Below are positions 525 to 12,580 of a stretch of 12,580 nucleotides of DNA, piece after piece. Below the pieces are notes generated by a model. It searched no databases. It was given only the letters and a program-made list of their open reading frames with translations, and was not told the origin of the DNA. The first letter of the stretch is position 1, and each line of letters starts with the position of its first letter. A program made the position numbers and the translations under genes. The DNA comes from Treponema sp. (GTDB lineage: Bacteria; Spirochaetota; Spirochaetia; Treponematales; Breznakiellaceae): assembly GCA_031257715.1 (NCBI GenBank), contig JAIROE010000257.1, positions 1 through 12,580 of the forward strand, in the 5' to 3' direction.

Positions 525-1653
525 GCCGTATGAGGTCCCAGACCGAGGGGATTTCCTGGCCTATGCGCCAGAAACCCACAGCCCGTACTCCCATTGAACG
601 GTACATCTCCATGCGCGCCGAAAGGGAATAATCGTCTTCGTAGTAAACCTTGACCGATACGGTAACATCGTAATCAAAGGAAGGAACGCCGTTTTCCCGG
701 TGTATGTCGGAAATACCGTTTTCATTGATGATTGTTTGTATGCCCGAATAAAGGTAAGCCCGTGAGGGGCTGATGTGCCCCCAGGCCCGGCCGTAAAAAG
801 GGAGGCCCATGATGAGTTTTTCCCTGCCTATGATCTCCAGTGAATATTCGGCTATCCGTTTGCACCAGCTCATGGAGGCGATGGGCCCCGGCTTGCTGCC
901 GGACCAGTGTTCGTCATAGGCCATTACGAGGATGCGGTCTACAAGGGGTTTTATTTTCACGTAATCGTAGACATCGGCGGCGACGGCGCGTGTCCGGGCC
1001 GGAAGCGCTATGGTAAACAGCTTGCCGGACAGTCCCGAACGCAGTTCCGCAAGAAAAGACAGGAAAGCCCGGCCATCCCGCGGGGGAATGTATTCAAAAT
1101 CTATCTGGAGACCGTCGAAATTCTCCGCGGCCTCAAGCAGATCGGCAATGAGCGTCTTTCGCTCGGGACTTCCTTCGGCAAGGACAAAATGGGAAAGCGC
1201 CTTGCCGCCGCAGGTTACCACCATGTGAAGCCTGCCCCCGAAATTCCTGATGTTCCGGGGGTTGGGCACATCAACCAGTTTGCCGTACATGTTTATTTCC
1301 GCGCCAAAGTACCCTATATCGGTAAGGGGCATGCCACCCCGAAAGGCATTCTCCCTGCCGCTCAGGAGATAGCCCCAGACCTCGGCAAAGACGGAGACGG
1401 GAAGATCCCCGTTTTCCGGAGGGAGATCGACGGGGGGATATTCTTCGGTTATTTCACCTGTTTCTTCGCCCTCCGCCGTTTCCATCTCCGTTTCAGCCGT
1501 TTCAGGCATTTCCGTTTCTTCCGGAACGGAGGAACAGGCCGTAAATAAAATGAGAAAAAACACCGCGAAAAGGATGAAACGGCCTGTTTTATGCGGAAAA
1601 CATGTCAGAACGCGGCTCAAAAACGTTCTTTCTTTCTGAATTGTACTTGACAA
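508..1653 (-). CDS. GH18-family glycoside hydrolase lipoprotein
   Basis: A 381-residue exported lipoprotein. A basic N-region precedes a hydrophobic stretch ending LFTAC, making Cys40 the likely lipid-modified residue; Phe at -3 fits the relaxed spirochaetal lipobox. Residues 41-80 form a Glu/Thr/Pro-rich linker. The rest matches glycoside hydrolase family 18: DGLQIDFE at 180-187 is the DGxxxDxE catalytic motif with Glu187 as the acid; MAYDEHW (244-250) supplies the conserved Tyr-Asp; GLPFYGRAW (283-291) and VGFWRIGQE (359-367) fit later strands of the barrel. Relatives cleave chitin or peptidoglycan-type N-acetylhexosamine polymers, so a cell-wall or scavenging role is likely, but the substrate cannot be read from sequence. 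The start is TTG, chosen because AAGGA (plus-strand 1660-1664) lies 6 bases upstream; the nearby ATG at 1670 is out of frame. It is divergent from the TetR operon. Confidence 0.9.
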   Translation of the reverse strand: MSSTIQKERTFLSRVLTCFPHKTGRFILFAVFFLILFTACSSVPEETEMPETAETEMETAEGEETGEITEEYPPVDLPPENGDLPVSVFAEVWGYLLSGRENAFRGGMPLTDIGYFGAEINMYGKLVDVPNPRNIRNFGGRLHMVVTCGGKALSHFVLAEGSPERKTLIADLLEAAENFDGLQIDFEYIPPRDGRAFLSFLAELRSGLSGKLFTIALPARTRAVAADVYDYVKIKPLVDRILVMAYDEHWSGSKPGPIASMSWCKRIAEYSLEIIGREKLIMGLPFYGRAWGHISPSRAYLYSGIQTIINENGISDIHRENGVPSFDYDVTVSVKVYYEDDYSLSARMEMYRSMGVRAVGFWRIGQEIPSVWDLIRLDTGG

Positions 1654-1751
1654 AAGTTGTCCTTTTCCATAATTTATTTAGTGGACGGAAGCATGATGTT
1701 GATAACGGACTATCATCTATGCAGATTATCGGTTAATTATAAAGAACAATT
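1654..1751. promoter_or_regulatory. Divergent control region between the GH18 gene and the TetR operon
   Basis: This AT-rich 98-bp gap must hold promoters for both directions. A perfect TATAAT is seen on the minus strand (1741-1736), but its expected -35 region is poor and would lie inside the TetR gene. On the plus strand TTGATA (1699-1704) could be a -35, with weak -10 candidates near 1723-1729. GATAA (1701-1705) and TTATC (1726-1730) form a spaced inverted pair that might belong to a TetR operator, although no long palindrome typical of TetR sites is evident. TetR regulators often control their own promoter and a divergent gene, so the GH18 gene could be co-regulated; this is inference. 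Confidence 0.4.
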
Positions 1752-2459
1752 ATGGGGATCATCGAGCGAAAAGAAAGGGAAAAAGCAGGGCGAAAAGATT
1801 TAATCATGCGCTGCGCCAAGGAACTTATTCTGGAATACGGCGTAGACAAGGTCAGCATGGTGGATATCGCCAGAAAAGCGGAGCTTTCCAAGGCGACGCT
1901 GTACCTCTATTTTCCCAGCAAGGATCTGCTTTTCAAGGAAATATGCGATATCGCCGGAGTCCAGTTTATCAACTATTTCCGTTCCAGGCAGAAACCGGGA
2001 ATGTCGGCTGTTGATACGCTGAAGCTCATCTGGGATTGTTACCTGGATCTGTTCGGGGAATCGGACGACATGCTGGTTATTTTCAGCATGAAAAAATATT
2101 TGTCGCCGGGTTTTCCCTTTATTCCCATAGAAAAGGATTCCCTTTCTCCGGCGGGTTCCAACTACGCGTTTTATTCTCTTCTTGTGGATCTGTTCGCAAA
2201 AGGGGTGGAGGAAGGGATCTTTGCCGAAGACGTGGATCCCGCCTCGATTTCCCGGACGTTCATAACATTCTTTTCTTATGTCGTTGAAACCGCCGCCAAA
2301 CTGCCAAAAAGCGGCAACGACTACCGCTGGGCCATTGAGGAGATGGCGAATCTTTTCCAGATTTTTCTGCGGGGTATAGCCGGGGACGGAGCGGATCTTT
2401 TGCGCCTTAAACTGTCTGATTCGAAAAAAGTGAAGACGGGAAAACAGGCAGTAACATAA
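1752..2459 (+). CDS. TetR/AcrR-family transcriptional regulator
   Basis: A 235-residue protein with a typical TetR N-terminal DNA-binding domain at about residues 13-60. The helix-turn-helix reads VSMVDIARKAELSKATLYLY from residue 34, followed by FPSKDLLFKEI, the family signature. Residues 65-210 form the helical ligand and dimerisation domain, which is variable, so the inducer cannot be predicted. The length is normal to slightly long. The ATG at 1752 has no clear ribosome site but gives the N-terminus expected for the family; a later start at residue 19 would cut into helix 1. Its TAA overlaps the ATG of the exporter by one base (TAATG), which implies translational coupling. It probably represses this operon until a lipid, detergent-like or toxic ligand binds; that is based on family habit and position only. 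Confidence 0.92.
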   Translation: MGIIERKEREKAGRKDLIMRCAKELILEYGVDKVSMVDIARKAELSKATLYLYFPSKDLLFKEICDIAGVQFINYFRSRQKPGMSAVDTLKLIWDCYLDLFGESDDMLVIFSMKKYLSPGFPFIPIEKDSLSPAGSNYAFYSLLVDLFAKGVEEGIFAEDVDPASISRTFITFFSYVVETAAKLPKSGNDYRWAIEEMANLFQIFLRGIAGDGADLLRLKLSDSKKVKTGKQAVT

Positions 2460-5182
2460 TGGCCCAATTTTTCAGGCATCCCTGGCTGATCCTCGCCGTT
2501 ATAGCCGTCATAACGGTTTTTTTTGCCGCGCAGCTTCCCCGGGCCGAACTGGACAACAACAACCTCCGTTTTGTTCCCGGGGACGATCCCACCCTCGCCA
2601 TGTCGCGGGACATAGACGACACTTTTGGAAGTTCCCTTTTTATTCTCATCGGACTTGAACGAAAATACGGAACCGTTTTTGAGAGGGAATTTCTTGGCCT
2701 CATAGACGGCTTTGTGCGGTGGGTCGAAGAGATCCCGATTGTTGAAAATGTCAAGGCCATCACCAACACCGACTACATCACCTCAAGCGGCGGCGCCATC
2801 GTGGTTGAAAAACTTGCCGGAAAGGACTTTTCCGGAAGCCCGGAAGAGATCGCGGAACTCAAACGGCGCGTTCTTTCCTGGGACATGTACGAAAGATCCC
2901 TTATTTCCGACGACTTTACTTCCACCCAGATCCTCGTGCCCCTCGATGTCGGTTCGGACGATGCGGGAAAGCCCGAGGTAGTCGCCAATTTTATCCGTAT
3001 CAGGAACAGGGCCGTGGAAATGTTTGACGGCGTTGCCGCGGTCTATGTGACGGGGATGCCGGTCATAAGCGCCACCATCAACGAGGCGGTCACCGCCGAT
3101 CTCAGGCTGCTCGTTCCTCTTGTCATCGCGGTGGTTTTGCTGGTGCTCTTCTTTTCTTTCAGGAAATTCACCGCGGTGGTTCTCCCCCTTCTCACGGTTG
3201 TCATCGCCGTAATCTGGTCCACAGGCGCGATGCCCCTTTTCGGGGTAAAGCTTTCGGTCATAACGACGGTGCTGCCCGTCATTCTTGTCGCGGTGGGAAG
3301 CGCATACGGGATTCACGTTGTTACCCATTACATCGCGGAGACGGATGGGAGGATCCTTGACCGGGAAGAACACCGCGAACTGGTCTATGAACTTCTGCGG
3401 AAAATAGGGCGGCCCGTATTTCTTGCCGCGCTTACCACCTTTGCGGGTTTCTTTTCATTCTGTTTTACCTCCGTCGTGCCGATCAGGGAATTTGGTTTTT
3501 TTTCAAGTTTCGGGGTGTTTGTTTCCTTTGCCGTGGCGCTGACGCTCATCCCTTCGCTCCTTATCATACGGGGGCCCAAATCCACCGGGAGCCTTTTCCG
3601 CCTGCGCCTGGAGGCGCGTGGCGTCAAAGATGCCGGGGGGAATGAAGATGGGGATCCCTTAAGTACGGTAATAGCCGCGGGACTGATGAAGGCGGCAGGA
3701 AAGAAGCGCTTTATATTGGGGCTTGCCGTCCTTGTCACCATCGTTGCCCTGTACGGCCTTTCAAAACTTGTCATTGACAATGTGTTTGTGGAGTATTTCA
3801 GGGATGATACGGATATTTACAGATCGGATGTTTTTATACGGGAGAAATTCGGCGGCTCAAAGGTTGTCAGTGTGGTCATGGAAGCGGACGATTCGGCGGC
3901 CCTTCTGCACCCCGATTCCCTTGCCGCCATGGACGGACTTGGCGCGTATCTTTCCGAACGGGTTCCCCAGGCAGGCAAGGTCATGGACTTCACTTCCCTT
4001 GTCAAACGTATAAACCAGGTGTTCAATGCCGATGAAAGTCCCGATGGTCTTGCGGCCGGAATTTCGGCCGGTTCGACGGGCGCTGAAAGCGCGGAAGGAC
4101 AGGACAGTTTCGGTTTTGACAATTTTGGATTTGATGATTTTGGATTTGGCGGCGATGATTTCGGCTTCGGCGATTCCGAACAGGACGGCTCTGGCATTGA
4201 GGGCAAGGTTCCGGATCAGGCGGACAGGGGAAAAAGGGTGTACACGGAGGAAGAACTTCTTGACCTCTTCGACAGGGCGGGCGGAAATTCCAAATCCATG
4301 AACGCGAATGATCTGGTATGGGAGCTCAAACGGCTCGTTAATTATGAAGGAGCCGCTTATTATGAGATACCGTGTGATCCTGAAAAATACGGGAAAAAAA
4401 CCAAAGAAGAACTGGGCCGGCTCATTTCAAATTATTTGGTGCTTCTTTCGGGAAACATAGATGAATACGCAAACGATCCCCTTGAACCCACCAGAATAAA
4501 ATCAACCGTACAGCTTCGCACCAAAGGAAAATATGACAGCAGCATCGCGCTTGCCGAAATAGACGGCTATGTCAAGACCCATTTTCCTCCCAACATACGG
4601 GTCGTGACGGGCGGCGTTACCCTGGTGGAATTTGCCCTTAACGCACTGGTCGTGCAGTCCCAGATCACTTCGGTGATCTTTTCCATCATCGTGGTGTTCA
4701 TCATCATCTCAATCTCAAACCGGTCTCTTGTAGCGGGTCTTGTGGCGGTGATTCCCCTTTCCATTTCCATTCTTGTCAATTTCGCGGTGATGGGTTTCGC
4801 GGGGATTAAGCTCAACATAGGAACCTCCATGGTGGCGGGTGTTTCGGTAGGCATAGGCATTGACTACACCATTCATTACATAGAGGCTTTCAAGCGTGAA
4901 TACCGGGCCGCTCTCGCGGCCGGAGAACAATTCGGCGGCAGGTTCCTTGTCAGGACCTTCAGGACTTCGGGAAAGGCCATAATAATAAATGCCGTTTCCG
5001 TCGGCGCGGGATTTGCGGTGCTTTTCCTTTCCAGGTTCGTCATGCTGGCCCATCTCGGACTGCTCATCGCCCTCACCATGGGTACAAGCGCCCTCGTAAG
5101 CCTTACGGTCATTCCGGTGCTGCTCACCACCATCAATCCGAAATTTGCCGGCAAAGGAGCCGGCATTGACATTTCGTGTTAA
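2459..5182 (+). CDS. RND-superfamily (MMPL/SSD-type) predicted exporter
   Basis: A 907-residue inner-membrane protein with the two-fold RND layout: one helix at 8-26, a periplasmic loop at 27-215, five helices between 216 and 370, a helix at 417-436, a second loop at 437-735, and five helices between 736 and 890. GIGIDYTIHYIEAF at 798-811 carries the Asp-Tyr of the membrane domain thought to relay protons. The first-half counterpart VGSAYGIHVVTHY (279-291) has Ala-Tyr there instead, so only one half appears able to use this Asp. The second loop is about 110 residues longer than the first and contains an acidic FGF-type repeat at 551-572. The family exports lipids or other hydrophobic molecules using proton-motive force. 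Here it is coupled to TetR and followed by a LolA-like and a barrel gene, pointing to inner-to-outer-membrane lipid traffic; the cargo is unknown. Confidence 0.92.
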   Translation: MAQFFRHPWLILAVIAVITVFFAAQLPRAELDNNNLRFVPGDDPTLAMSRDIDDTFGSSLFILIGLERKYGTVFEREFLGLIDGFVRWVEEIPIVENVKAITNTDYITSSGGAIVVEKLAGKDFSGSPEEIAELKRRVLSWDMYERSLISDDFTSTQILVPLDVGSDDAGKPEVVANFIRIRNRAVEMFDGVAAVYVTGMPVISATINEAVTADLRLLVPLVIAVVLLVLFFSFRKFTAVVLPLLTVVIAVIWSTGAMPLFGVKLSVITTVLPVILVAVGSAYGIHVVTHYIAETDGRILDREEHRELVYELLRKIGRPVFLAALTTFAGFFSFCFTSVVPIREFGFFSSFGVFVSFAVALTLIPSLLIIRGPKSTGSLFRLRLEARGVKDAGGNEDGDPLSTVIAAGLMKAAGKKRFILGLAVLVTIVALYGLSKLVIDNVFVEYFRDDTDIYRSDVFIREKFGGSKVVSVVMEADDSAALLHPDSLAAMDGLGAYLSERVPQAGKVMDFTSLVKRINQVFNADESPDGLAAGISAGSTGAESAEGQDSFGFDNFGFDDFGFGGDDFGFGDSEQDGSGIEGKVPDQADRGKRVYTEEELLDLFDRAGGNSKSMNANDLVWELKRLVNYEGAAYYEIPCDPEKYGKKTKEELGRLISNYLVLLSGNIDEYANDPLEPTRIKSTVQLRTKGKYDSSIALAEIDGYVKTHFPPNIRVVTGGVTLVEFALNALVVQSQITSVIFSIIVVFIIISISNRSLVAGLVAVIPLSISILVNFAVMGFAGIKLNIGTSMVAGVSVGIGIDYTIHYIEAFKREYRAALAAGEQFGGRFLVRTFRTSGKAIIINAVSVGAGFAVLFLSRFVMLAHLGLLIALTMGTSALVSLTVIPVLLTTINPKFAGKGAGIDISC
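4109..4174 (+). repeat. Coding repeat: acidic FGFD/FGFG units in the exporter's second periplasmic loop
   Basis: Residues 551-572 consist of units beginning FGF: FGFDN, FGFDD, FGFGGDD, FGFGD. The block is almost wholly Phe, Gly, Asp and Asn. The DNA repeats are imperfect, with varied third bases, so selection is probably acting on the peptide. It lies between a Gly/Ser/Glu-rich stretch and a helical segment (VYTEEELLDLFDRAGG, 594-609), and is expected to be exposed in the periplasm. A very similar peptide begins the mature barrel protein encoded downstream. Confidence 0.85.
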
Positions 5183-5185
5183 TAG

Positions 5186-5217
5186 AGTTGTTCAATAACT
5201 TCAGTTATTGAACAACT
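5186..5217 (+). repeat. Perfect 14-bp-stem palindrome just after the exporter stop codon
   Basis: AGTTGTTCAATAAC (5186-5199) and GTTATTGAACAACT (5204-5217) are exact reverse complements around a TTCA loop. The hairpin starts 4 bases after the stop codon. No U-run follows on either strand and the stem is AT-rich, so it does not look like a normal intrinsic terminator. It could protect the upstream mRNA, bind a dimeric protein, or be a dispersed palindromic repeat. Confidence 0.8.
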
Positions 5218-5230
5218 TCCGCTAAAAAAT

Positions 5231-5248
5231 GGCGGATTTGGCGGATTT
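5231..5248 (+). repeat. Tandem 9-bp direct repeat
   Basis: GGCGGATTT occurs twice in immediate succession (5231-5239 and 5240-5248), directly after the large palindrome. Its role is unknown; it may have arisen by slippage. Confidence 0.6.
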
Positions 5249-5283
5249 TTGCAAAAAATACACCGAATCTGTGAGGCTTGTGA

Positions 5284-5302
5284 AAGAACCAGCCGGGTTC
5301 TT
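5284..5302 (+). repeat. Small hairpin, 7-bp stem
   Basis: AAGAACC (5284-5290) and GGTTCTT (5296-5302) pair perfectly around AGCCG. A second short palindrome, CTTGAACAAG (5300-5309), overlaps its right arm. The two could form alternative RNA structures upstream of the LolA-like gene, but no ligand-binding riboswitch fold is recognised. Confidence 0.5.
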
Positions 5303-5366
5303 GAACAAGTCCAATGTTCGATAAAACACGGGCGGCAATGCCACCGCTTTTTACAGGAGTGTAAAG

Positions 5367-6158
5367 ATGAATAAAAAAACTTTTTTGTTTCTGCCGTTTG
5401 TTCTTGTGACGGGACTTCTCTCCGGCGCGGGGAGTCTTTTTGCGGAGGACGCCTACAGCATCGTACATGCCTCCCGGAACCGCGTAAGCGCCGTCACGAT
5501 CTCCACGAGGGCGCGTATGGTCATTACCGCGAAAAACGGAAGCACGACGGAGCGGATCATCGATCAGTATTCCAAAGACGGACAGGGGAACAGCCGGAGC
5601 GTCATCGTATTTCAGCGGCCGCAGTCGGTGGCGGGCACCCGTTTTCTTGTTATCGAAAAACCCGGTTCCAGTGACGACCGATGGATATTTCTTCCGTCGT
5701 TGGGAAAAGTGCGGCGTATAGCCGCATCGGAAGGATCGGCGAGTTTCATGGGGACCGACTTTTCCTTTGACGATATTTCTTCCGCGAACCGTGACGCCGA
5801 TCTTGATACTCACACGCTTGCCGGTGAGGAAAGCCTTAACGGGCGTCCCTGTTATGTGATCGAGTCCCGGCCCAAAGATCCTTCGTATCAGTATTCACGG
5901 ATGGTCCAGTGGATAGACAGGGAAACGGGGGTCAACCACAAGCTTGAACTGTACGACAAACAGAACGCCCTCGTGAAACGCGTGGAAATGCTGGACATAC
6001 GGGAAATAGAGGGGAGGCTTTCACCCATGGTCACCAAAATGACTACACTGGCTTCGGGTACCTCGACAACCCTCTACGTGGATATCCTTAAATATGACGA
6101 TCCCATTCCCGAAAGCGTTTTTACCACCGCGTATCTTGAGACGGGAAGGGCGCGATGA
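5367..6158 (+). CDS. Periplasmic outer-membrane lipoprotein-sorting (LolA-like) protein
   Basis: A 263-residue exported protein. A Sec signal peptide (Lys3-Lys4, hydrophobic core, cleavage probably after SLFA, residue 26) precedes a domain resembling the outer-membrane lipoprotein-sorting family often encoded beside RND exporters (PF17131-like, a LolA/LolB-type half-barrel). Recognisable blocks are RWIFLPSLGKVRRIA (105-119), FMGTDFSFDDIS (127-138) and VQWIDRETG (180-188). Proteins with this fold cradle lipid or acyl chains in a hydrophobic groove. Here it would ferry cargo from the exporter to the barrel protein. There is no lipobox, so it is probably soluble. The ribosome site AGGAG (5355-5359) lies 7 bases before the ATG. 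Its TGA overlaps the next gene's ATG (ATGA), indicating coupled translation. Similarity is judged by eye. Confidence 0.88.
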   Translation: MNKKTFLFLPFVLVTGLLSGAGSLFAEDAYSIVHASRNRVSAVTISTRARMVITAKNGSTTERIIDQYSKDGQGNSRSVIVFQRPQSVAGTRFLVIEKPGSSDDRWIFLPSLGKVRRIAASEGSASFMGTDFSFDDISSANRDADLDTHTLAGEESLNGRPCYVIESRPKDPSYQYSRMVQWIDRETGVNHKLELYDKQNALVKRVEMLDIREIEGRLSPMVTKMTTLASGTSTTLYVDILKYDDPIPESVFTTAYLETGRAR

Positions 6159-7597
6159 AAAAAAACCGCGTTCCGGGAAGGCGCCTCCCCGCGATCCTTG
6201 CCCTCGCCTTCTTTGCCCTTCTTCCTCCCGCGGCCGGCGCGCAGGAGTTCGGCTTTGGTTTTGACGATGAGGATCCGGAAAGCTCGGGCGGTTCCTCCGC
6301 TTCTTTTCCCGTTTCGGTAAAGCTGGGCGGAAAGGCGCGGGGAGAACTCTTTGCCTTTTTTGACGATCTTAATACCTTTGAGGAATTGAAGAATTCAAGT
6401 CCCGGCGACATTTTCAGCGGCGCGCTTTATTTCAGCGCCTCGGCGTCCGGCGCCGACGCCGTCATAAACCTCAATCTCGGCATGAACAGGAACAATCCTG
6501 TCGCGCTTGATGAGGCTTTTTTCAGGGTGTATTTTGGCCCCGCAAATATCGAGGCGGGCCTTAGAAAACTTTCCTGGGGCAGAGCGGACAGCTTCGGCCC
6601 GCTTGATGTGGTGAATCCCCTGGATTATTCGGATCTTTCGCGGATCACAAATGTACGCGAGATCAAGATAGCCCGTCCCATGGTTCACGGGACGGTGAAC
6701 ATGGGGAGCAGTTCAAAGCTGGAAGCGGTGTTTATTCCGGGTTTTGAAGGGCACAGATTCGCCTCTTCGGGACGCTGGACGCCTTCCGTGCCGGTAGACG
6801 GCATCTTTTCTTCATCGATGGCAGGCGGGATCCTTTCCTCCCTTCTGAACAATTATTACAGTCTCCTTGTTATGCCCGATACGGGGAAGCTTGAATACGC
6901 GCAGGCAGGCATGCGTTTTACCACGACGGCGGGTCCCGCGGATATTGGGGCGCAGTATTTTTTCGGGAACCTCTTTCGGCCTTCTTACAGTTTTGGGGGA
7001 GCGGGCGCTTTTCTTGCGGATCTTTTGACGGTTCTTCCTTCAAATCCCCGTTACACCGGGAATTTTTCCCTGCTGAGTTCCCGTATTGAATACAACCGTT
7101 ACCATCAGATAGGCGCCGACTGGGCCCAGGTGATAGCGGGCTTCAACATACGGGCAGAACTTGCGGCCCATATCACGCAGGATCTTGCCGGAAATGCCGG
7201 CTGGGTGCGGAATCCTTTTATCAGTTGGTCGTTTGGTTTTGACCGTGACACCGTGTGGGACATCAATGTAAACCTGCAGTGTAACGAGTCCGTCCGCCTT
7301 TTCGGTGACAAAAACAGCGCCTTTGCCGTTGATTTTGCATGGGACAGGCTGCCCGTTTCAACAAGGCTGACGCTGATAGTTTCCAAAAAATTCCTCCGGG
7401 ACAACCTCGAAGTTAAATGTACCGGGATCTTCGATCCCGAGGATACCGGTCTTTACCTTATCCCCGCCGTTTCCTGGGCCATAGGGGAAGTTACCGCGGA
7501 TCTTCAGGCGGGTATTTTCGCCGGAAAGAAAGGCGGTGAACTGTCACAGTACCGGAACAGCGGCTACATCAAGACGGCGCTGACATATTCTTTTTAG
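6155..7597 (+). CDS. Outer-membrane beta-barrel protein (DUF1302-like) of the exporter operon
   Basis: A 480-residue protein with a signal peptide (KK...GRR, hydrophobic 11-25, cleavage probably after AGA at residue 29). Much of the mature chain alternates polar and hydrophobic residues as in transmembrane beta-strands, and it ends ...KTALTYSF, with the terminal Phe typical of BAM-inserted proteins. LSWGRADSFGPLDVVNPLDY (139-158) resembles a motif of DUF1302-type barrels, which often occur beside RND exporters and LolA-like proteins; I infer this by eye. The mature N-terminus, on the periplasmic side by usual topology, starts QEFGFGFDDED (30-40), echoing the repeat in the exporter loop. GGGAAGG lies about 5 bases upstream of the ATG. 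It would be the outer-membrane end of the transport route. It could alternatively be an independent porin. Confidence 0.85.
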   Translation: MKKNRVPGRRLPAILALAFFALLPPAAGAQEFGFGFDDEDPESSGGSSASFPVSVKLGGKARGELFAFFDDLNTFEELKNSSPGDIFSGALYFSASASGADAVINLNLGMNRNNPVALDEAFFRVYFGPANIEAGLRKLSWGRADSFGPLDVVNPLDYSDLSRITNVREIKIARPMVHGTVNMGSSSKLEAVFIPGFEGHRFASSGRWTPSVPVDGIFSSSMAGGILSSLLNNYYSLLVMPDTGKLEYAQAGMRFTTTAGPADIGAQYFFGNLFRPSYSFGGAGAFLADLLTVLPSNPRYTGNFSLLSSRIEYNRYHQIGADWAQVIAGFNIRAELAAHITQDLAGNAGWVRNPFISWSFGFDRDTVWDINVNLQCNESVRLFGDKNSAFAVDFAWDRLPVSTRLTLIVSKKFLRDNLEVKCTGIFDPEDTGLYLIPAVSWAIGEVTADLQAGIFAGKKGGELSQYRNSGYIKTALTYSF

Positions 7598-7626: not shown

Positions 7627-9744
7627 TCACAGCGCAAGAGACGCGAGCCATGTTTCAAACGCTTCCTGTGCGGCCCTGGATGTTTTTTCCGCCTCTTCAA
7701 GCCGCGCGAGAAGCCGGTCTATGCCGGCGTCCGCTTCGGAAAGGCGCCGCAGGTATTCCTGTCCCTGGGGCGTCGTGTTTCCCGCGGCCTCAAGGTTTGC
7801 CCGTATGCGGGCCTGCTCGGAAATGAGGCGTTCCCTTCCGGCCGCTATGGCCGCCTCTTCCTGTTTTGCCGCGTCGGCTTTTTGTTTCAGCGAAACAGCT
7901 TCCTCAAGGGCCCGCCTGACGTTTGCGGGGATTTCCCGGTTTGATGCGTAGAAAAGAAGATTTTCAACGCGCAGCGTCGAGAGGCCTATCCGCTCGGAAA
8001 GCGGAATTTCCTCCCGTACCGAAAAGACATTTTCCGAACCGGCATTGATCGAACGGGTAAAGCGGTACACCGTCCGGGTTTTTTCCTCCGGCGCGGGTAC
8101 GGAAAGTTCCGCTCCGGGCGTTATGGGATGTTCAATGACAAGTTCCCGCGTTTCTTCCGTGTTGTTTTTTACCGTGTACTTCCGCTCGTGTATCTCCCGC
8201 CTGCTTATTGTCATGATCCCGCCCGATACTGCCGCGGCGCTTATCACCCGTGAAACGGAAATTTCCGCGCTTGCCGTGACGGAAAGATCCTCTCCGTAGG
8301 AGAGGAGTCTTTTTTCGCCGTCACCAAGGAATTCGATAAGGGCGTCTCCCGCGTAGGTTCCCCCGTCATACACAGTGACGGGGCCGGCGGGGAATTTTAC
8401 GCCCGCCGCGTTGGTGATTTCGGCTCCAAGCCGGGGATGTACGGTTTTGCCGGTGGCGTCCGTCCCGGAGAGGATGAGCAGTTTTCTGACGGGGAGCCTC
8501 GCCTGCACCAGCGGAAACATGGCGCTCATACGGCGGTCAAGTGTCACCGGTTCCCGCATGGTAAACTCGAACTGATCCCCCGCCGCCTGTGCCCCGATTG
8601 CAAGGGATTCGTAAGCGGGAACGGCATCCGCGGAGGCGATCTTTTGGGCCTCGTTCGGCGCGGGTGCGCGGGACCGCATCAAAGGCGCCGCTTGCGCTTC
8701 CTCCATCCCGGCGGCAGGACCAAAAGCCGCGGCCGCCTGCGCGCTTCCCGTGTCGTAGCTTCTCGCATCGGCGGTTCCGGCGATTGAAAGGGGCAGGACG
8801 GGCCGCGAAAGATAATAAGGCGGATAGAGGTTCTGTATGAACGAGACGGGCCTTCCCGCTACCAGCGACAATTCTACATTTTTCCAGTCGCTGTCGCTGT
8901 CGTTATCGACGATAGCCCATCCCTGAAAAAAAGCTCCGTCACGGGACGCAAGATCCAGCCTGTAGGAAACTTTCCAGACAGGGGCGGGGATGACATAGCT
9001 TACCGAAACGGAGCGGCTCTCTCCGCCCCCGAGATTGAGGGTGAGTTCACGTAAAAGGGAATTACCCGACGCCGCGAGAAGATCCATCGCCCGGTTCAGA
9101 TCTTCTCCAATGCGGGGATCGGGAAAATTTATGGTGCTTATATCCTTCAGGTTTACCGGACGGAGGCCCGATTCCGTGTAGATGACGAGCCATGGTTCCT
9201 GTATCGGAGGAAGGCGAAAATCCTGCGCCGGCGAAACGTTCCTGTATTCAATGCCGGCGATTCTTCCCCGTATGGGCGGCGCGGCAATTTCTATTTCCAC
9301 CCCGCGCAAGGACATCAATATGGCTGCGAGATCGGGATTCCCTGAAAGATCTATTGAAAGGCTTTGGAGGGTGGCAACGAGGGTACGTTCCGAAGGGTAG
9401 TTTACCGAAGGCGCCCCGCCGGATGCGGGATCATGTATCACCAGCGATTTGAGCGCGTCGTTGACGGCTTCGGTCCTGAAGTAGAGGCGCAAAACGGAAG
9501 AGCCCCGGACCGTTCCCGAACGCTCATAACAGGCGACTCCGGAAGAAAAAAGGGCGACACGCCTGATTGGAAGTTCACGGGAAACGGCGGCCGGGCCGGA
9601 ACCTCCCGCATCTCCCCGTCCTTCCTCCCGCGCCGCCTGAGCCTCAAGGCCGGCAACGGCGCACGCGAATACAAACGCCGCAATAGCCGGAAACAGTATG
9701 CCGGAAGCCGTCTTCCCGCGTGTATTGTACGCCGGTGTTTTCAT
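7627..9744 (-). CDS. DUF4139-like exported protein with C-terminal coiled coil
   Basis: A 705-residue exported protein. The signal peptide is basic then hydrophobic, with cleavage probably after AQA (residue 37). Residues 59-105 (IRRVALFSSGVACYERSG...) resemble the N-terminal DUF4140-like domain. WKVSYRLDL (257-265), DNDSDSDWKNVELSLVAGRP (280-299) and the block at 451-490 (FPAGPVTVYDGGTYAGDALI...) are characteristic of DUF4139. An Ala-rich stretch at 325-390 looks like a flexible insertion. Residues 610-705 form two charged helices broken at NTTPQGQ, probably a coiled-coil hairpin. The start at 9744 is preferred to an ATG-less in-frame extension to 9828 because it gives a proper signal peptide, has GAGG upstream, and overlaps the previous gene's stop as ATGA. 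The family is linked by name to mucoidy inhibition, but no function is established. It is last in its operon. Confidence 0.85.
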   Translation of the reverse strand: MKTPAYNTRGKTASGILFPAIAAFVFACAVAGLEAQAAREEGRGDAGGSGPAAVSRELPIRRVALFSSGVACYERSGTVRGSSVLRLYFRTEAVNDALKSLVIHDPASGGAPSVNYPSERTLVATLQSLSIDLSGNPDLAAILMSLRGVEIEIAAPPIRGRIAGIEYRNVSPAQDFRLPPIQEPWLVIYTESGLRPVNLKDISTINFPDPRIGEDLNRAMDLLAASGNSLLRELTLNLGGGESRSVSVSYVIPAPVWKVSYRLDLASRDGAFFQGWAIVDNDSDSDWKNVELSLVAGRPVSFIQNLYPPYYLSRPVLPLSIAGTADARSYDTGSAQAAAAFGPAAGMEEAQAAPLMRSRAPAPNEAQKIASADAVPAYESLAIGAQAAGDQFEFTMREPVTLDRRMSAMFPLVQARLPVRKLLILSGTDATGKTVHPRLGAEITNAAGVKFPAGPVTVYDGGTYAGDALIEFLGDGEKRLLSYGEDLSVTASAEISVSRVISAAAVSGGIMTISRREIHERKYTVKNNTEETRELVIEHPITPGAELSVPAPEEKTRTVYRFTRSINAGSENVFSVREEIPLSERIGLSTLRVENLLFYASNREIPANVRRALEEAVSLKQKADAAKQEEAAIAAGRERLISEQARIRANLEAAGNTTPQGQEYLRRLSEADAGIDRLLARLEEAEKTSRAAQEAFETWLASLAL

Positions 9745-11078
9745 GGTATATCCTCTTTCTTCATGATCCTTGCGATATAAAAGGCAAGTCCTGTCAACAC
9801 GATTACCGCACATGTCAATATACCCCATAAAAAAAATTCTTCAAAGCGCCGGGGCGGGAAGGATCCCTGTTTGTCTCTCCGGTAGAGCGCCTCCCCAACG
9901 GCGGCCCTTTCGGCGGCCGCTCCGGCGGGAACGGCGAAACTTTCCGCCGGGCCGGCGGCGGCGTTTCCGAAGGCAAGGGTCCATGGACCTTTCCCCCTTC
10001 CGGGAAAAACGATTTCTTTTACTTCCCGGACAAAACGGCACTCGGGAACATTTGCGAAGGGAAAAGAAAGCGATTCGAGTTCCCAGTAAGGGGCGGAAGA
10101 GGATACTTCCATGGGGTCATGCGTTCTTTCCCCGTCTTCATCCGAAAAACGAAACAGGGTCACTCTCCCCGCAATCCGCCATTCGTCGTTTTTATCCAGC
10201 CTGTTCCTCACCATCGCCTCAACGGAATCGGCTTCGGGGAGGATGAAATTGACGGAAACAATGGGGAAAAAGCCCCCGGCATCATAATCGATGACGTGGC
10301 GTTCCCCGTCACGAAAGGCTCCTTCCGCGGTCCATTCCCGCCGGGGAGGCGGGAGGTTCACCGCATCGAAACGCGCCGTAACGCCAAGCAGCGGAGGAAC
10401 GGGAGTTTCAAATTTCAAAAGAAGGTAGCGCATGCCTGTTTCGGGAAGTTCGATGGTATCGCGGTTTGCGCCCGAATTACCATATCTGGCTATGATCTGC
10501 CGTCTCTCAAATTCTTTCCACCGGGAAAGATCCGCCGCGCCTGAAAATACCCGCACCGCGGAATTGTAATTCGCCTCATTTTCCATGGAGAGGGCGAGAG
10601 AGGACGGCGTATGGCCGAATCCTGAAAAATCAAGGAGATACACCGGCCTTCCGCCGCCCGCGCTTCCTCCGCCGCGGCTGTTGACGCGGATCACCGTTCC
10701 CGACGCGTCTATCACCACATCGGCTTCCGCGGGAAGTGTTCCGCCTTCCTCTTCCCAGATGAAGAACGGTACCTCAAGGGGCGGCGGGGTAAAGCTGCCG
10801 CCGGGAACGGGACGCACCGCGAAGGGAACCGGCAGCCCCCCGGCGTCAAAGATCCGCATGTCGGCCATGTCGGCGCGTTCAAGACCCCGGTACACAGCTT
10901 CGGGAATTTCCAGTGAAAGAAGCCGGCCCGCCGTTCCGCCGAGGGGAATGCTCCCGGCAAATTCCCCGCTCTCCTCTTTCCGGGCCTCTTTTCCAGGCCC
11001 CGGCTCTTCAAATTCCGGCTCTCCTTCCGCCATTGCGACGGCAAGAAAGAAAAGAACGCAGGCGGCGGCCTTACGCAC
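9741..11078 (-). CDS. DUF3999-like membrane-anchored envelope protein
   Basis: A 445-residue protein. The signal peptide (RK, then AAACVLFFLAVAMA) is probably cleaved after residue 17. An acidic Pro/Glu linker (18-40) leads to a long beta-rich extracytoplasmic region, including MRIFDAGGLPVPFAVRPVPG at 74-93, which I recognise as DUF3999 style. A single helix (about 416-438) followed by KKEDIP anchors the C-terminus, leaving a tiny cytoplasmic tail. The start is GTG, overlapping the upstream gene's TAA by 8 bases; a GGAAGGA sequence lies unusually close to it, so initiation may rely on coupling. Downstream it overlaps the DUF4139-like gene by 4 bases. Adjacency to a DUF2339-like gene is a recurring pairing from memory, suggesting a shared complex. 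No catalytic motif is visible and the function is unknown. Confidence 0.82.
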   Translation of the reverse strand: MRKAAACVLFFLAVAMAEGEPEFEEPGPGKEARKEESGEFAGSIPLGGTAGRLLSLEIPEAVYRGLERADMADMRIFDAGGLPVPFAVRPVPGGSFTPPPLEVPFFIWEEEGGTLPAEADVVIDASGTVIRVNSRGGGSAGGGRPVYLLDFSGFGHTPSSLALSMENEANYNSAVRVFSGAADLSRWKEFERRQIIARYGNSGANRDTIELPETGMRYLLLKFETPVPPLLGVTARFDAVNLPPPRREWTAEGAFRDGERHVIDYDAGGFFPIVSVNFILPEADSVEAMVRNRLDKNDEWRIAGRVTLFRFSDEDGERTHDPMEVSSSAPYWELESLSFPFANVPECRFVREVKEIVFPGRGKGPWTLAFGNAAAGPAESFAVPAGAAAERAAVGEALYRRDKQGSFPPRRFEEFFLWGILTCAVIVLTGLAFYIARIMKKEDIP

Positions 11079-12580
11079 GGTCCTTCCCGCCTTCGGCTTT
11101 CGCCGGGACCGGAGGCAGCGGCGCCGCCCATCCTATGAAAAGCAGAACGAAACCGGCAATAAAAAACGAAACTATCCGCGTCACCGCCCCTGTTCCGGCA
11201 AGATCAAAGAGAAGGAGTTTTGCCACATCGGCTACCGTAAGAACGGCGCCGGCTATCCATATTCCCCGCCCGGCAATTCTGTGTCCCGTGATGATGTGGG
11301 CTATACCGTAAACGGCCCAGAGGATGAACAGGCAGAGGTGAAATACGTGGGAAGAAGGCACCATTTTCCATGGGACTTCGCCGTAAAAATGAACGCTTCG
11401 GGCGGTAACGGTGATGGTAAAAACAAAGAATGCCGAATCTGCAAGCGTTACCAGCGCCGCCTTCCCGAGCCCCCGGAAACCGGAAGCTTTCCCTTCCTCA
11501 AAAAAACGCTTTTTTCTTTTCAGGAGCGAAATTTGCCAGAGGAGGAAAAGGACGATGCAGAACGCTTCTTCAAGGTCAAGCGGATTAACGACGGGAAGAT
11601 AAAGGGGGAGGGGAGCGGGATCGCCGGGAAGAAAGAGCGTTACAACGAACCAGAGGGCCATGACACAGGAGAGGATAAAAGGAAGGATGAAAAAAACGCA
11701 CCGGTTTCTTGGGCCGCAAGGAACGCGTTTTGCGAAGATACCCGCCGCCGCCATGACGGCGAATACGGGGATGAGCCCCGCGAAACTGGTCCAGGATTCG
11801 GAAAGGTGAAGCCCGACGGACAGAGCCCGGCCTGAAGAACATATGACCACAAGGATGGAGAGGAATGCCGCAAGCAGCCATGCGCCGTGAAGGGCTTCCT
11901 TTAGCATCTTCCGCGCAAGGAAGAGGACAATCCCCTGGCATGCAAGGAAGGCCGGCCAGCCCCAGCGGTACAGCCCGTAAAAAAAATTAACACTCAAAAA
12001 AGGGCCGTCATTGTAGATGCTTCCTGCCGCGCCTTTCACCGCAAGAAAGATACCGTACACGAGGGAAGGCAGAGCGCCGGGAAGCAGCGCCCTGCAGCCA
12101 GAGAACCGCGCCGCCGCGCACGCCGCAAGCGCCGTCACCGAACAGAAAACAAAGAAAAGCGCATCGGGGAACGGAAACACCCTCTTCAATTCAAAAAACC
12201 AGCCGCCGAACCACCATGCAAAAGCCCATGCCGCCGCGACAAAGGGAAAGGCCGGATAAAAAATTTTTATGGCGAAGCCGGCTCCTTCCGCGGATTCGCC
12301 TCTTTCATCCCGCTTTTTTCTGAATCTTTCGGCGAGGATGACAAAGAGGAAAGCGGCAAGTGAAATGACAAGCGCCCCCGAAAAACGGGAACCGCGAAAC
12401 GCCCCTTCGGCAACGCCCGCTTCCTCAAAGGCAAAAATCACGGCGGCGGCAACATGAACAAGGAGCCCGGCGGCGGCGGTACGGAAGCGGTTCTGCCTGA
12501 GACCGAAAAAGAAAAAAGCCGCCCCTTCCGCCGCCCACAGTGCGCTTGTTATACGGGGCGAAAGTTCAAGGGGCGCGGCC
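11071..12580 (-). CDS. DUF2339-like polytopic membrane protein, C-terminal part (runs off right edge)
   Basis: The frame is open from the right edge to TAA at 11071, giving 502 residues. An in-frame GTG at 12441 is not the true start, because coding continues upstream: the first residues AAPLELSPRITSALWAAEGA, then AFFFFGLRQNRFR, match the SALWAxEGaxxxxxGLRQ style of DUF2339 proteins. Those proteins usually approach a thousand residues, so roughly the N-terminal half is missing. The visible part is a string of about a dozen hydrophobic helices joined by short Arg/Lys-containing loops, ending in a soluble AEGGKDRA tail. No enzymatic motif is evident. It is first among the visible genes of a leftward operon with the DUF3999-like and DUF4139-like genes and is probably the membrane core of whatever they build. 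Function unknown. Confidence 0.85.
   Translation of the reverse strand, partial: AAPLELSPRITSALWAAEGAAFFFFGLRQNRFRTAAAGLLVHVAAAVIFAFEEAGVAEGAFRGSRFSGALVISLAAFLFVILAERFRKKRDERGESAEGAGFAIKIFYPAFPFVAAAWAFAWWFGGWFFELKRVFPFPDALFFVFCSVTALAACAAARFSGCRALLPGALPSLVYGIFLAVKGAAGSIYNDGPFLSVNFFYGLYRWGWPAFLACQGIVLFLARKMLKEALHGAWLLAAFLSILVVICSSGRALSVGLHLSESWTSFAGLIPVFAVMAAAGIFAKRVPCGPRNRCVFFILPFILSCVMALWFVVTLFLPGDPAPLPLYLPVVNPLDLEEAFCIVLFLLWQISLLKRKKRFFEEGKASGFRGLGKAALVTLADSAFFVFTITVTARSVHFYGEVPWKMVPSSHVFHLCLFILWAVYGIAHIITGHRIAGRGIWIAGAVLTVADVAKLLLFDLAGTGAVTRIVSFFIAGFVLLFIGWAAPLPPVPAKAEGGKDRA

What the first reader, a model, noticed from the sequence alone, without database searches (positions are those of the whole stretch)
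4109..6274. A shared FGF-acidic motif in the exporter's periplasmic loop and at the N-terminus of the outer-membrane barrel
The exporter's second loop has four FGF-starting units made of F, G, D and N (residues 551-572). The mature barrel protein two genes later begins QEFGFGFDDED (30-40). Both should face the periplasm. Such a rare composition appearing twice in one operon, in two unrelated proteins, suggests a common docking or assembly tag: both could bind the LolA-like shuttle in turn, bind each other to bridge the membranes, or bind a metal through the Asp residues. The sequences and positions are seen directly; periplasmic exposure follows from family topology; the docking role is inference.
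Basis: partly seen in the sequence, partly recalled or inferred. Interest (0 to 1): 0.7.

Follow-up and report, generated by a model that had tools for sequence, protein, structure and literature searches.

The report
Co-evolving docking tag bridging spirochaete membranes
In many spirochaetes an inner-membrane exporter and its partner outer-membrane channel carry the same short aromatic-acidic tag, and when the tag changes in one protein it usually changes in the other, which suggests that the two ends of an export route recognise a common partner or each other.

Summary
In detail: four FGF units in the second periplasmic domain of an MMPL/RND exporter, and QEFGFGFDDED at the mature N-terminus of a barrel two genes on. 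Of the 120 listed homologues each (window included), 118 exporters and 118 barrels have FGF in place. Across 128 exporter-barrel pairs the tag diverges into dialects (FGF, FWF/FWDF, SFFEE, SFFDD, DDWG, FDDFGSF, PPLGF) and the two proteins usually share the dialect, also between paralogous operons of one genome. Phylogeny-controlled partial r is 0.54-0.67, against 0.09-0.20 for control segments. Codon choice argues against DNA copying. The tag was not seen at the start of other exported proteins sampled. The few non-spirochaete operons read lack it.

Best reading: a shared docking code, probably read by the LolA-like shuttle encoded between them, whose divergence tracks the dialect. Like-with-like pairing remains possible; metal binding is unlikely. 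No binding was shown. The machine is a new variant of known RND-LolA-DUF1302 exporters; I found no description of the code in the literature searched.

The parts
1752..2459 (+). TetR-family regulator, first gene of the operon
   Evidence: PF00440 50.7 bits, cut-off 24
2459..5182 (+). MMPL/RND exporter (HAE3-like), 907 aa
   Evidence: PF03176 138.4 bits, cut-off 20.5; TIGR00921 211.9 bits, below its cut-off 351.9
4022..4258 (+). Exporter residues 522-600: insert in the second periplasmic domain, 61-148 aa in the 120 listed exporters, that carries the tag
4109..4174 (+). Exporter tag: four FGF units, residues 551-572
5186..5217 (.). Perfect inverted repeat (15-nt arms) directly after the exporter stop codon; possible operator or RNA hairpin, function not studied
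5367..6158 (+). LolA-like periplasmic shuttle, 263 aa; its stop overlaps the barrel's start codon (ATGA)
   Evidence: PF17131 211 bits, cut-off 30; AlphaFold2 pLDDT 91.6; best fold match 9tp6, P. gingivalis LolA3; overlap read
6155..7597 (+). Outer-membrane beta-barrel, 480 aa, about 18 predicted strands (my count), ends in F
   Evidence: AlphaFold2, porin folds in Foldseek; no Pfam family at E 1e-3, some homologues carry PF06980/DUF1302 (name DUF1302 recalled)
6242..6274 (+). Barrel tag QEFGFGFDDED, residues 30-40, mature N-terminus, predicted disordered

Best explanation
The exporter, the LolA-like protein and the barrel form one export route from the inner to the outer membrane. The disordered periplasmic insert of the exporter (usually several tag copies) and the disordered N-terminal tail of the barrel (one or a few copies) carry the same short aromatic-acidic tag, because both are docking sites for one partner, most likely the LolA-like shuttle made from the gene between them. 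The multivalent exporter tract would hold the shuttle while it is loaded; the barrel tail would capture it for delivery. Each lineage, and each paralogous operon within a genome, uses its own dialect, so loop, tail and reader change together. Shown: presence, position, conservation and co-variation of the two tags; correlation of LolA-like divergence with the dialect; no sign of DNA copying. Inferred: periplasmic exposure (from family topology and hydropathy), physical docking, the shuttle as reader, handover, and a lipid-like substrate.
For: Conservation in both proteins. Dialects shared within operons. Own pair better than permuted pairs: 54 representatives z 6.8, p 0.0002 (median rank 11.2 of 54, since most of them share FGF); 13 representatives z 4.9, p 0.0002, median rank 1.0 of 13. 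Partial Mantel given exporter-core distance r 0.54-0.67, p 0.0005-0.001, against 0.09-0.20 for control segments. FGF changes on the same branch and in the same direction 5 times, 0.56 expected. Codons at matched residues 0.476 identical against 0.468 expected. LolA distance tracks loop dialect (partial r 0.40) and tag (0.32), and 0.31 and 0.21 after the barrel body is also removed, while loop against barrel body given LolA is 0.11, p 0.10; stable in nearer subsets for the loop. LolA and barrel genes overlap by ATGA. Tags kept in three genomes where the barrel found lies elsewhere on the chromosome.
Against: No binding or complex model. Loop and tag still correlate (0.47) after all three protein bodies are removed, which direct pairing would also give. 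Barrel-body distance also correlates with both tags when only the exporter core is removed (0.29 and 0.27). LolA column signals depend on which distant operons are kept, and the tag-LolA correlation weakens to 0.24, p 0.068, in the nearest subset. Discordant operons: L225 (SFFADSSF against FDELEQ) and L201 (SSFFDDAG against DSWGDDGAWGD); L259 and L261 have no exporter insert but a weak DYxxLF in the barrel. In several others the match is loose (L066, L206, L207, L210, L245).
Confidence: 0.55

Rival explanations
1. Like-with-like docking: the exporter tract and the barrel tail bind each other directly (stacked aromatic beta-like segments), bridging the two membranes; the shuttle works inside that bridge.
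For: The two tags resemble each other, more or less closely, in the 15 operons set side by side (picked by me), and stay correlated (0.47) after exporter, LolA and barrel bodies are all removed. No reader pocket has to be invented.
Against: LolA divergence also tracks the dialect. Exporters L018 and L053 keep FGF tracts with neither a LolA nor a barrel gene found in the loci held, nearly 10 kb downstream (the partner could be elsewhere). A tail of some 20 residues and an insert of 61-148 would have to meet across the periplasm (inference).
Confidence: 0.25
2. Both tags bind an unlinked envelope factor such as an assembly chaperone, peptidoglycan-anchored scaffold or BAM accessory, and the shuttle has no part in recognition.
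For: Tags are kept when the barrel found is unlinked and in exporters without a neighbouring barrel.
Against: Two paralogous operons in one genome keep different matched dialects (L109 and L240 of G155; L074 and L075 of one MAG bin), which one general factor would hardly read. The barrel has an ordinary C-terminal F, so the N-terminal tag is not the BAM signal (family knowledge, recalled).
Confidence: 0.13
3. Drift: disordered acidic-aromatic segments of one lineage share composition without a common function.
For: Some residual correlation in control segments: barrel N-terminus against barrel 60-100 partial r 0.19-0.20, p 0.005-0.009; loop against LolA 45-100 0.15-0.16, p 0.04-0.05; loop against LolA start p 0.0034 with 13 representatives.
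Against: These are far below 0.54-0.59 for the tag pair. FGF positions are among the most conserved of the whole barrel. The motif was not found at other exported N-termini in the 30 matches examined. Shuffled barrel tails match worse: 4.09 against 5.06.
Confidence: 0.05
4. Metal-binding tag through the Asp residues.
For: Acidic residues are frequent in most dialects.
Against: Number and spacing of acids vary freely, and PPLGF[DE] has few, whereas the aromatics are the conserved part.
Confidence: 0.02

Closest known systems
AmeABCD of Castellaniella defragrans (PMC6394551; abstract and passages read)
   Same: HAE3 RND exporter with a LolA-superfamily periplasmic protein (DUF1329) and a DUF1302 outer-membrane protein; deletion lowered monoterpene tolerance and raised Nile Red accumulation
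   Different: Has a fourth protein, AmeC, not seen in this operon; no shared tag is described in the passages read
MMPL - outer membrane lipoprotein-sorting protein - DUF1302 operon on a Prevotella nigrescens replicon (L284)
   Same: Same three genes in the same order
   Different: The exporter has no insert (MNCTLNGNKQQFYRIP) and the barrel has no tag (AQIDNTLPAG)
LolCDE-LolA-LolB lipoprotein sorting; P. gingivalis LolA3 (9tp6; PMC13103446 passages read)
   Same: The shuttle has the LolA3 fold (TM-score 0.82); that paper reports positive surface potential around the LolA3 opening and selective LolA-LolB pairing
   Different: Here the ends are an RND exporter and a barrel, not LolCDE and LolB; the passages read name no partner for LolA3
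MucB-MucA (6in9, 6jau) and RseB-RseA (3m4w; that it holds RseA is recalled), all
   Same: LolA-related folds solved with a partner protein, a precedent for a LolA fold recognising a partner segment
   Different: Stress signalling, not transport; weak fold match (TM-score about 0.25-0.40)
FG-repeat nucleoporins (recalled, no call)
   Same: Multivalent disordered aromatic-glycine repeats that hold a passing carrier
   Different: Analogy only; no homology claimed

Membership tests
MMPL/RND exporters (Pfam PF03176; HAE3) | Pfam MMPL profile above gathering score, two TM bundles with two large periplasmic domains | tested here: met
   138.4 bits against 20.5; hydrophobic segments
HAE3 as NCBIfam TIGR00921 | Score above curated cut-off 351.9 | tested here: not met
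   211.9 bits: HAE3-like, not a member by this model
LolA_like PF17131 | Profile above gathering score and open LolA half-barrel | tested here: met
   211 bits against 30; model and fold match
DUF1302 (PF06980) | Pfam profile match | tested here: not met
   No Pfam family at E 1e-3; precomputed PF06980 on some homologues
AmeABCD-type tetrapartite exporter | Four proteins, including AmeC | tested here: not met
   The operon holds TetR, exporter, LolA-like and barrel only; AmeC elsewhere in the genome cannot be checked, no genome is held
BAM beta-signal | C-terminal strand signal ending in an aromatic (recalled) | tested here: not met
   The tag is N-terminal; the barrel separately ends in ...LTYSF
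LolA shuttle function (hydrophobic cargo carrier between membranes) | Binding and delivery of an acylated or lipid cargo | not testable with these tools
   Needs biochemistry

The most novel reading that the evidence does not exclude
Spirochaetes evolved an address code for envelope export: matching short tags on an inner-membrane RND exporter and on its outer-membrane barrel, read by a LolA-like shuttle (or by each other), which diversified into at least seven dialects so that paralogous exporters in one cell find their own barrels. The RND exporter annotated TP0790 in Treponema pallidum, modelled in print as an AcrB-like TolC-dependent pump, would descend from this shuttle-type machine instead (its identity with the G053 exporter read here is recalled from genome size, not shown).
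Probability: 0.45. Interest if true: 0.85.

Novelty: new variant of a known kind. Interest (0 to 1): 0.72.

Why it matters
How RND exporters of the MMPL/HAE3 kind hand hydrophobic cargo to the outer membrane without an AcrA-type adaptor is, to my knowledge, open. A pair of tags that co-evolve on the two membrane ends gives a direct handle: it points to the binding segments, offers matched and mismatched natural dialects as built-in specificity controls, and suggests which periplasmic protein to test as reader. It also bears on how spirochaetes, many of which lack LPS (recalled), build their outer membranes, and on a published efflux-pump model of the TP0790 exporter (PMC8407342, passages).

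Tried and rejected
Metal-binding tag: rejected as unlikely, because acids vary while aromatics persist. DNA copying between the two genes: not supported by codon identity at matched residues. General N-terminal feature of treponemal exported proteins: not supported; of 68 matches to Q[DE]FGF[GDE] in 112 genomes of one family (7 in the reversed control), the 30 with loci were 16 barrels of this family, 1 exporter and 13 unrelated places, none of the 13 at a signal-peptide end; the other 38 were not looked at. FGF[G/D/E]F in four genomes (a fifth handle was not held): 23 matches, 3 in exporter tracts (two exporters), 20 without similarity to exporter, LolA or barrel (one search was a failed script). 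An ABC-type LolCDE-like cluster (L278) was looked at for a similar tag without a clear result. Literature: no paper with both Treponema and FGFGF; the listings show no description of such a tag. The library is limited to open PMC papers. A complex prediction of shuttle plus tag peptide was not possible (monomers only).

Weak points of the statistics. Of 222 exporter hits, 27 had no clean loop and 52 no barrel (the two can overlap); after removal of duplicates 129 pairs were left and one (L203) was dropped. One locus among the 80 (L017) is titled a Clostridia bacterium. Tag windows were cut badly in some rows (L023, L033, L197 were counted as FGF-discordant, although the FGF is seen for L023 and for L033). 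Features SF and F.DF/DFG.F are weak or null on the tree (the observed share was reached in 170 and 16 of 300 shuffles), FF is borderline (p 0.061) and W weak (p 0.047). Control segments are not all null (listed under rivals). The Fitch shuffles ignore clumping; the branch-length-weighted null is the better one. Paralogues from MAG bins could in principle be binning errors; G155 is one 2.84-Mb contig for both operons.
Full report
WHAT IS THERE. The window (Treponema-like: many homologues are named Treponema sp.; no genome held) has one + strand operon: TetR (1752-2459), MMPL/RND exporter (2459-5182), LolA-like protein (5367-6158) and beta-barrel (6155-7597). The LolA stop and the barrel start overlap as ATGA. 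The annotated genes on either side are on the other strand.

TOPOLOGY. The exporter tract lies between the hydrophobic segments 413-444 and 726-767, i.e. in the second periplasmic domain by RND topology (established knowledge, not measured here). It sits in an insert 61-148 residues long in the 120 listed exporters. The barrel model (pLDDT 81.3) has about 18 strands by my count and a tail, residues 23-50, with pLDDT under 50; Foldseek finds porins. An even strand number puts the N-terminus in the periplasm (inference). The shuttle model (pLDDT 91.6) matches P. gingivalis LolA3, 9tp6.

CONSERVATION. Of the 120 listed barrels 118 have FGF in the first 110 residues, and of the 120 listed exporters 118 have 1-7 FGF in the loop. 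These are the best 120 of 1161 and of 1602 hits, and each 120 includes the window's own protein. One barrel without it (P0067) starts after the tail; the other (P0117) has DFDAFSGFDGF. The exporters without it have WSFG/FDDDDWSFGGF (P0204) and WDPFNFGDIF (P0210). In 63 aligned barrels, picked by me from the 120, F34 is invariant and F32, G33 and G35 nearly so, in an alignment with 48% mean column identity.

CO-VARIATION. The dialects match, written exporter / barrel: window FGFD / FGFGFD; L064 and its clade FWDF / FWFD (with DFWLE in L055 and DYWFD in L079); L109 FGDFGNFEEE / GDFGFDDEE; L240 SFFDDED / SFFDDSD; L114 PFSFFEEE / LSFFEEG; L116 SLSFFSDD / DFSFFDT; L118 DDFSDFSEF / DFDDFGSF; L124 GWDDWGSDF / FDDWGSF; L223 DDWGDSG / DDWGSD; L258 PPLGFE / PPLGFD. 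Apart from the window itself, these have exporter cores 33-56% identical to the window's. Paralogues in one genome keep different matched pairs: MAG bin Cd354_bin14 L074 (FWDF / FWFD) and L075 (FGFGF / FGFG), bin Im510_bin46 L079 and L058, G003 L236 (FWDF / FWFD) and L235 (FGF), and G155 L109 and L240.

STATISTICS. Of 222 exporter hits 129 unique pairs had both a clean loop and a barrel, and 128 were kept (63 from the 80 loci, 64 from other genomes, and the window). Own-pair against permuted-pair similarity: 54 representatives own 5.20, other 4.60, z 6.8, p 0.0002, median rank 11.2 of 54; 13 representatives 5.23 against 4.12, z 4.9, p 0.0002, median rank 1.0 of 13. Controls with 54/13 representatives: barrel 60-105 p 0.058/0.66, LolA start p 0.062/0.0034, exporter linker p 0.13/0.80. 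Partial Mantel given exporter-core distance: r 0.56, 0.54, 0.59 and 0.67 for 105, 80, 54 and 28 representatives, each p 0.0005; control loop against barrel 60-100 0.09 (p 0.09-0.13), the other two controls 0.15-0.20 (p 0.005-0.05). FGF presence agrees in 91% of 128 pairs; 9 changes in loops, 8 in tails, 5 on the same branch and in the same direction, 0.56 expected by branch length, p 0.0002. W, FF and WG/DW give p 0.047, 0.061 and 0.017; SF is null and F.DF/DFG.F weak. Codon identity at 662 matched residues is 0.476, expected 0.468, so the match is kept at the protein level.

SPECIFICITY. In 112 genomes of one family the N-terminal form of the motif has 68 matches against 7 for the reversed control; among the 30 examined, every one at a signal-peptide end is this barrel (16), with 1 exporter and 13 unrelated. 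In ORFs of at least 120 aa of the 80 loci (602,368 residues, both strands, exporters and barrels included in that total), 23 other ORFs hold FGF[G/D/E] or one of four related patterns (F[G/W]FxF, FGFGFD, DFGFG, DFWFD); 10 of them in the sequence SFGFDTA, and none that I could see as a tag after a signal peptide.

LOSS AND UNLINKED CASES. In G383, G388 and G362 the barrel nearest the family lies elsewhere on the chromosome (about 0.25-0.9 Mb away) and still starts DDFGFD, while the exporter loops read FGDFGDFG. G053 (1,139,633 bases) has exporter and LolA-like genes, no barrel found at E 1e-3, and a decayed tract DDFGVFKTF. Nine distant operons in which the exporter has no insert (L257, L260, L263-L268 and L270) have barrels without the tag; in L256 the insert site was not located and the barrel starts EDEFDEF. 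Non-spirochaete operons from plasmid records (Bacteroidota, Fusobacteriota, Pseudomonadota) lack insert and tag in what was read: an acidic-aromatic scan of seven exporters (L284, L285, L287-L291), with the insert site itself seen only in L284, L285 and L288; no barrel was found beside L288, and the L291 barrel start (DTEFSGFLES) is at most a faint resemblance. Two more loci (L286, L292) have an ABC exporter by eye. Exceptions to co-variation: L225, L201, L259 and L261, with loose matches in L066, L206, L207, L210 and L245.

WHO READS IT. 112 pairs had a usable LolA-like sequence, 71 representatives. LolA-like distance correlates with loop dialect (partial r 0.40, p 0.001) and with tag dialect (0.32, p 0.002) given exporter-core distance, and also when the barrel body is removed too (0.31 and 0.21). 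Barrel-body distance correlates as well when only the exporter core is removed (0.29 and 0.27), but loop against barrel body given LolA is not significant (0.11, p 0.10). Loop against tag stays at 0.47 with all bodies removed. In nearer subsets LolA-loop stays 0.47 and LolA-tag falls to 0.32 and 0.24 (p 0.068). Single LolA columns 251, 259, 215, 122 and 240 pass or reach a family-wise test on all 71, but the list shifts with the subset (251, 215 and 240, then 116); 240 stays in every list. This is exploratory. A LolA-related fold bound to a partner protein has a precedent in MucB-MucA structures, and P. gingivalis LolA3 is reported with positive potential round its opening (PMC13103446, passages), which would suit an acidic tag. 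I therefore favour the shuttle as common reader, with direct tag-tag pairing second.

AGAINST WHAT IS KNOWN. The gene set is known in kind: AmeABCD (PMC6394551, abstract and passages) and a Prevotella MMPL-LolA-DUF1302 operon. The tag pair is not in the passages read or in the listings. The T. pallidum exporter TP0790 was modelled as AcrB-like with the adaptor TP0965 and TolC-like factors (PMC8407342, passages). The Bacteroidota LolA3 papers (PMC13103446 and PMC11885536, passages) do not mention an MMPL or RND partner in their main text by term count.

Noticed in passing
window 5186-5217: Perfect 15-nt inverted repeat with a 2-nt gap directly after the exporter stop codon, in the 184-nt gap before the LolA-like gene; no T run follows.
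   Followed up: partly
L278 (G089:C49), locus 1407-6973: A LolCDE-like ABC cluster (ATPase, two permeases, by eye) followed by a LolA_like gene and a barrel starting AQTDEDFFEDVTE: an ABC counterpart of the RND system; no clear matching tag seen in the permeases.
   Followed up: partly
L280 / G053:C1:845000-862000: A 1.14-Mb treponemal genome keeps exporter and LolA-like genes but no family barrel was found; the exporter tract is decayed.
   Followed up: partly
L018, L053, L239: Exporters with full FGF tracts but no LolA or barrel gene found just downstream in the same direction (about 10, 10 and 3.6 kb held); L239 has a barrel-like gene upstream instead.
   Followed up: no
window 7627-12579, minus strand: Convergent cluster DUF4139, DUF3999, DUF2339, membrane or exported proteins of unknown function in a row next to the operon.
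   Followed up: no
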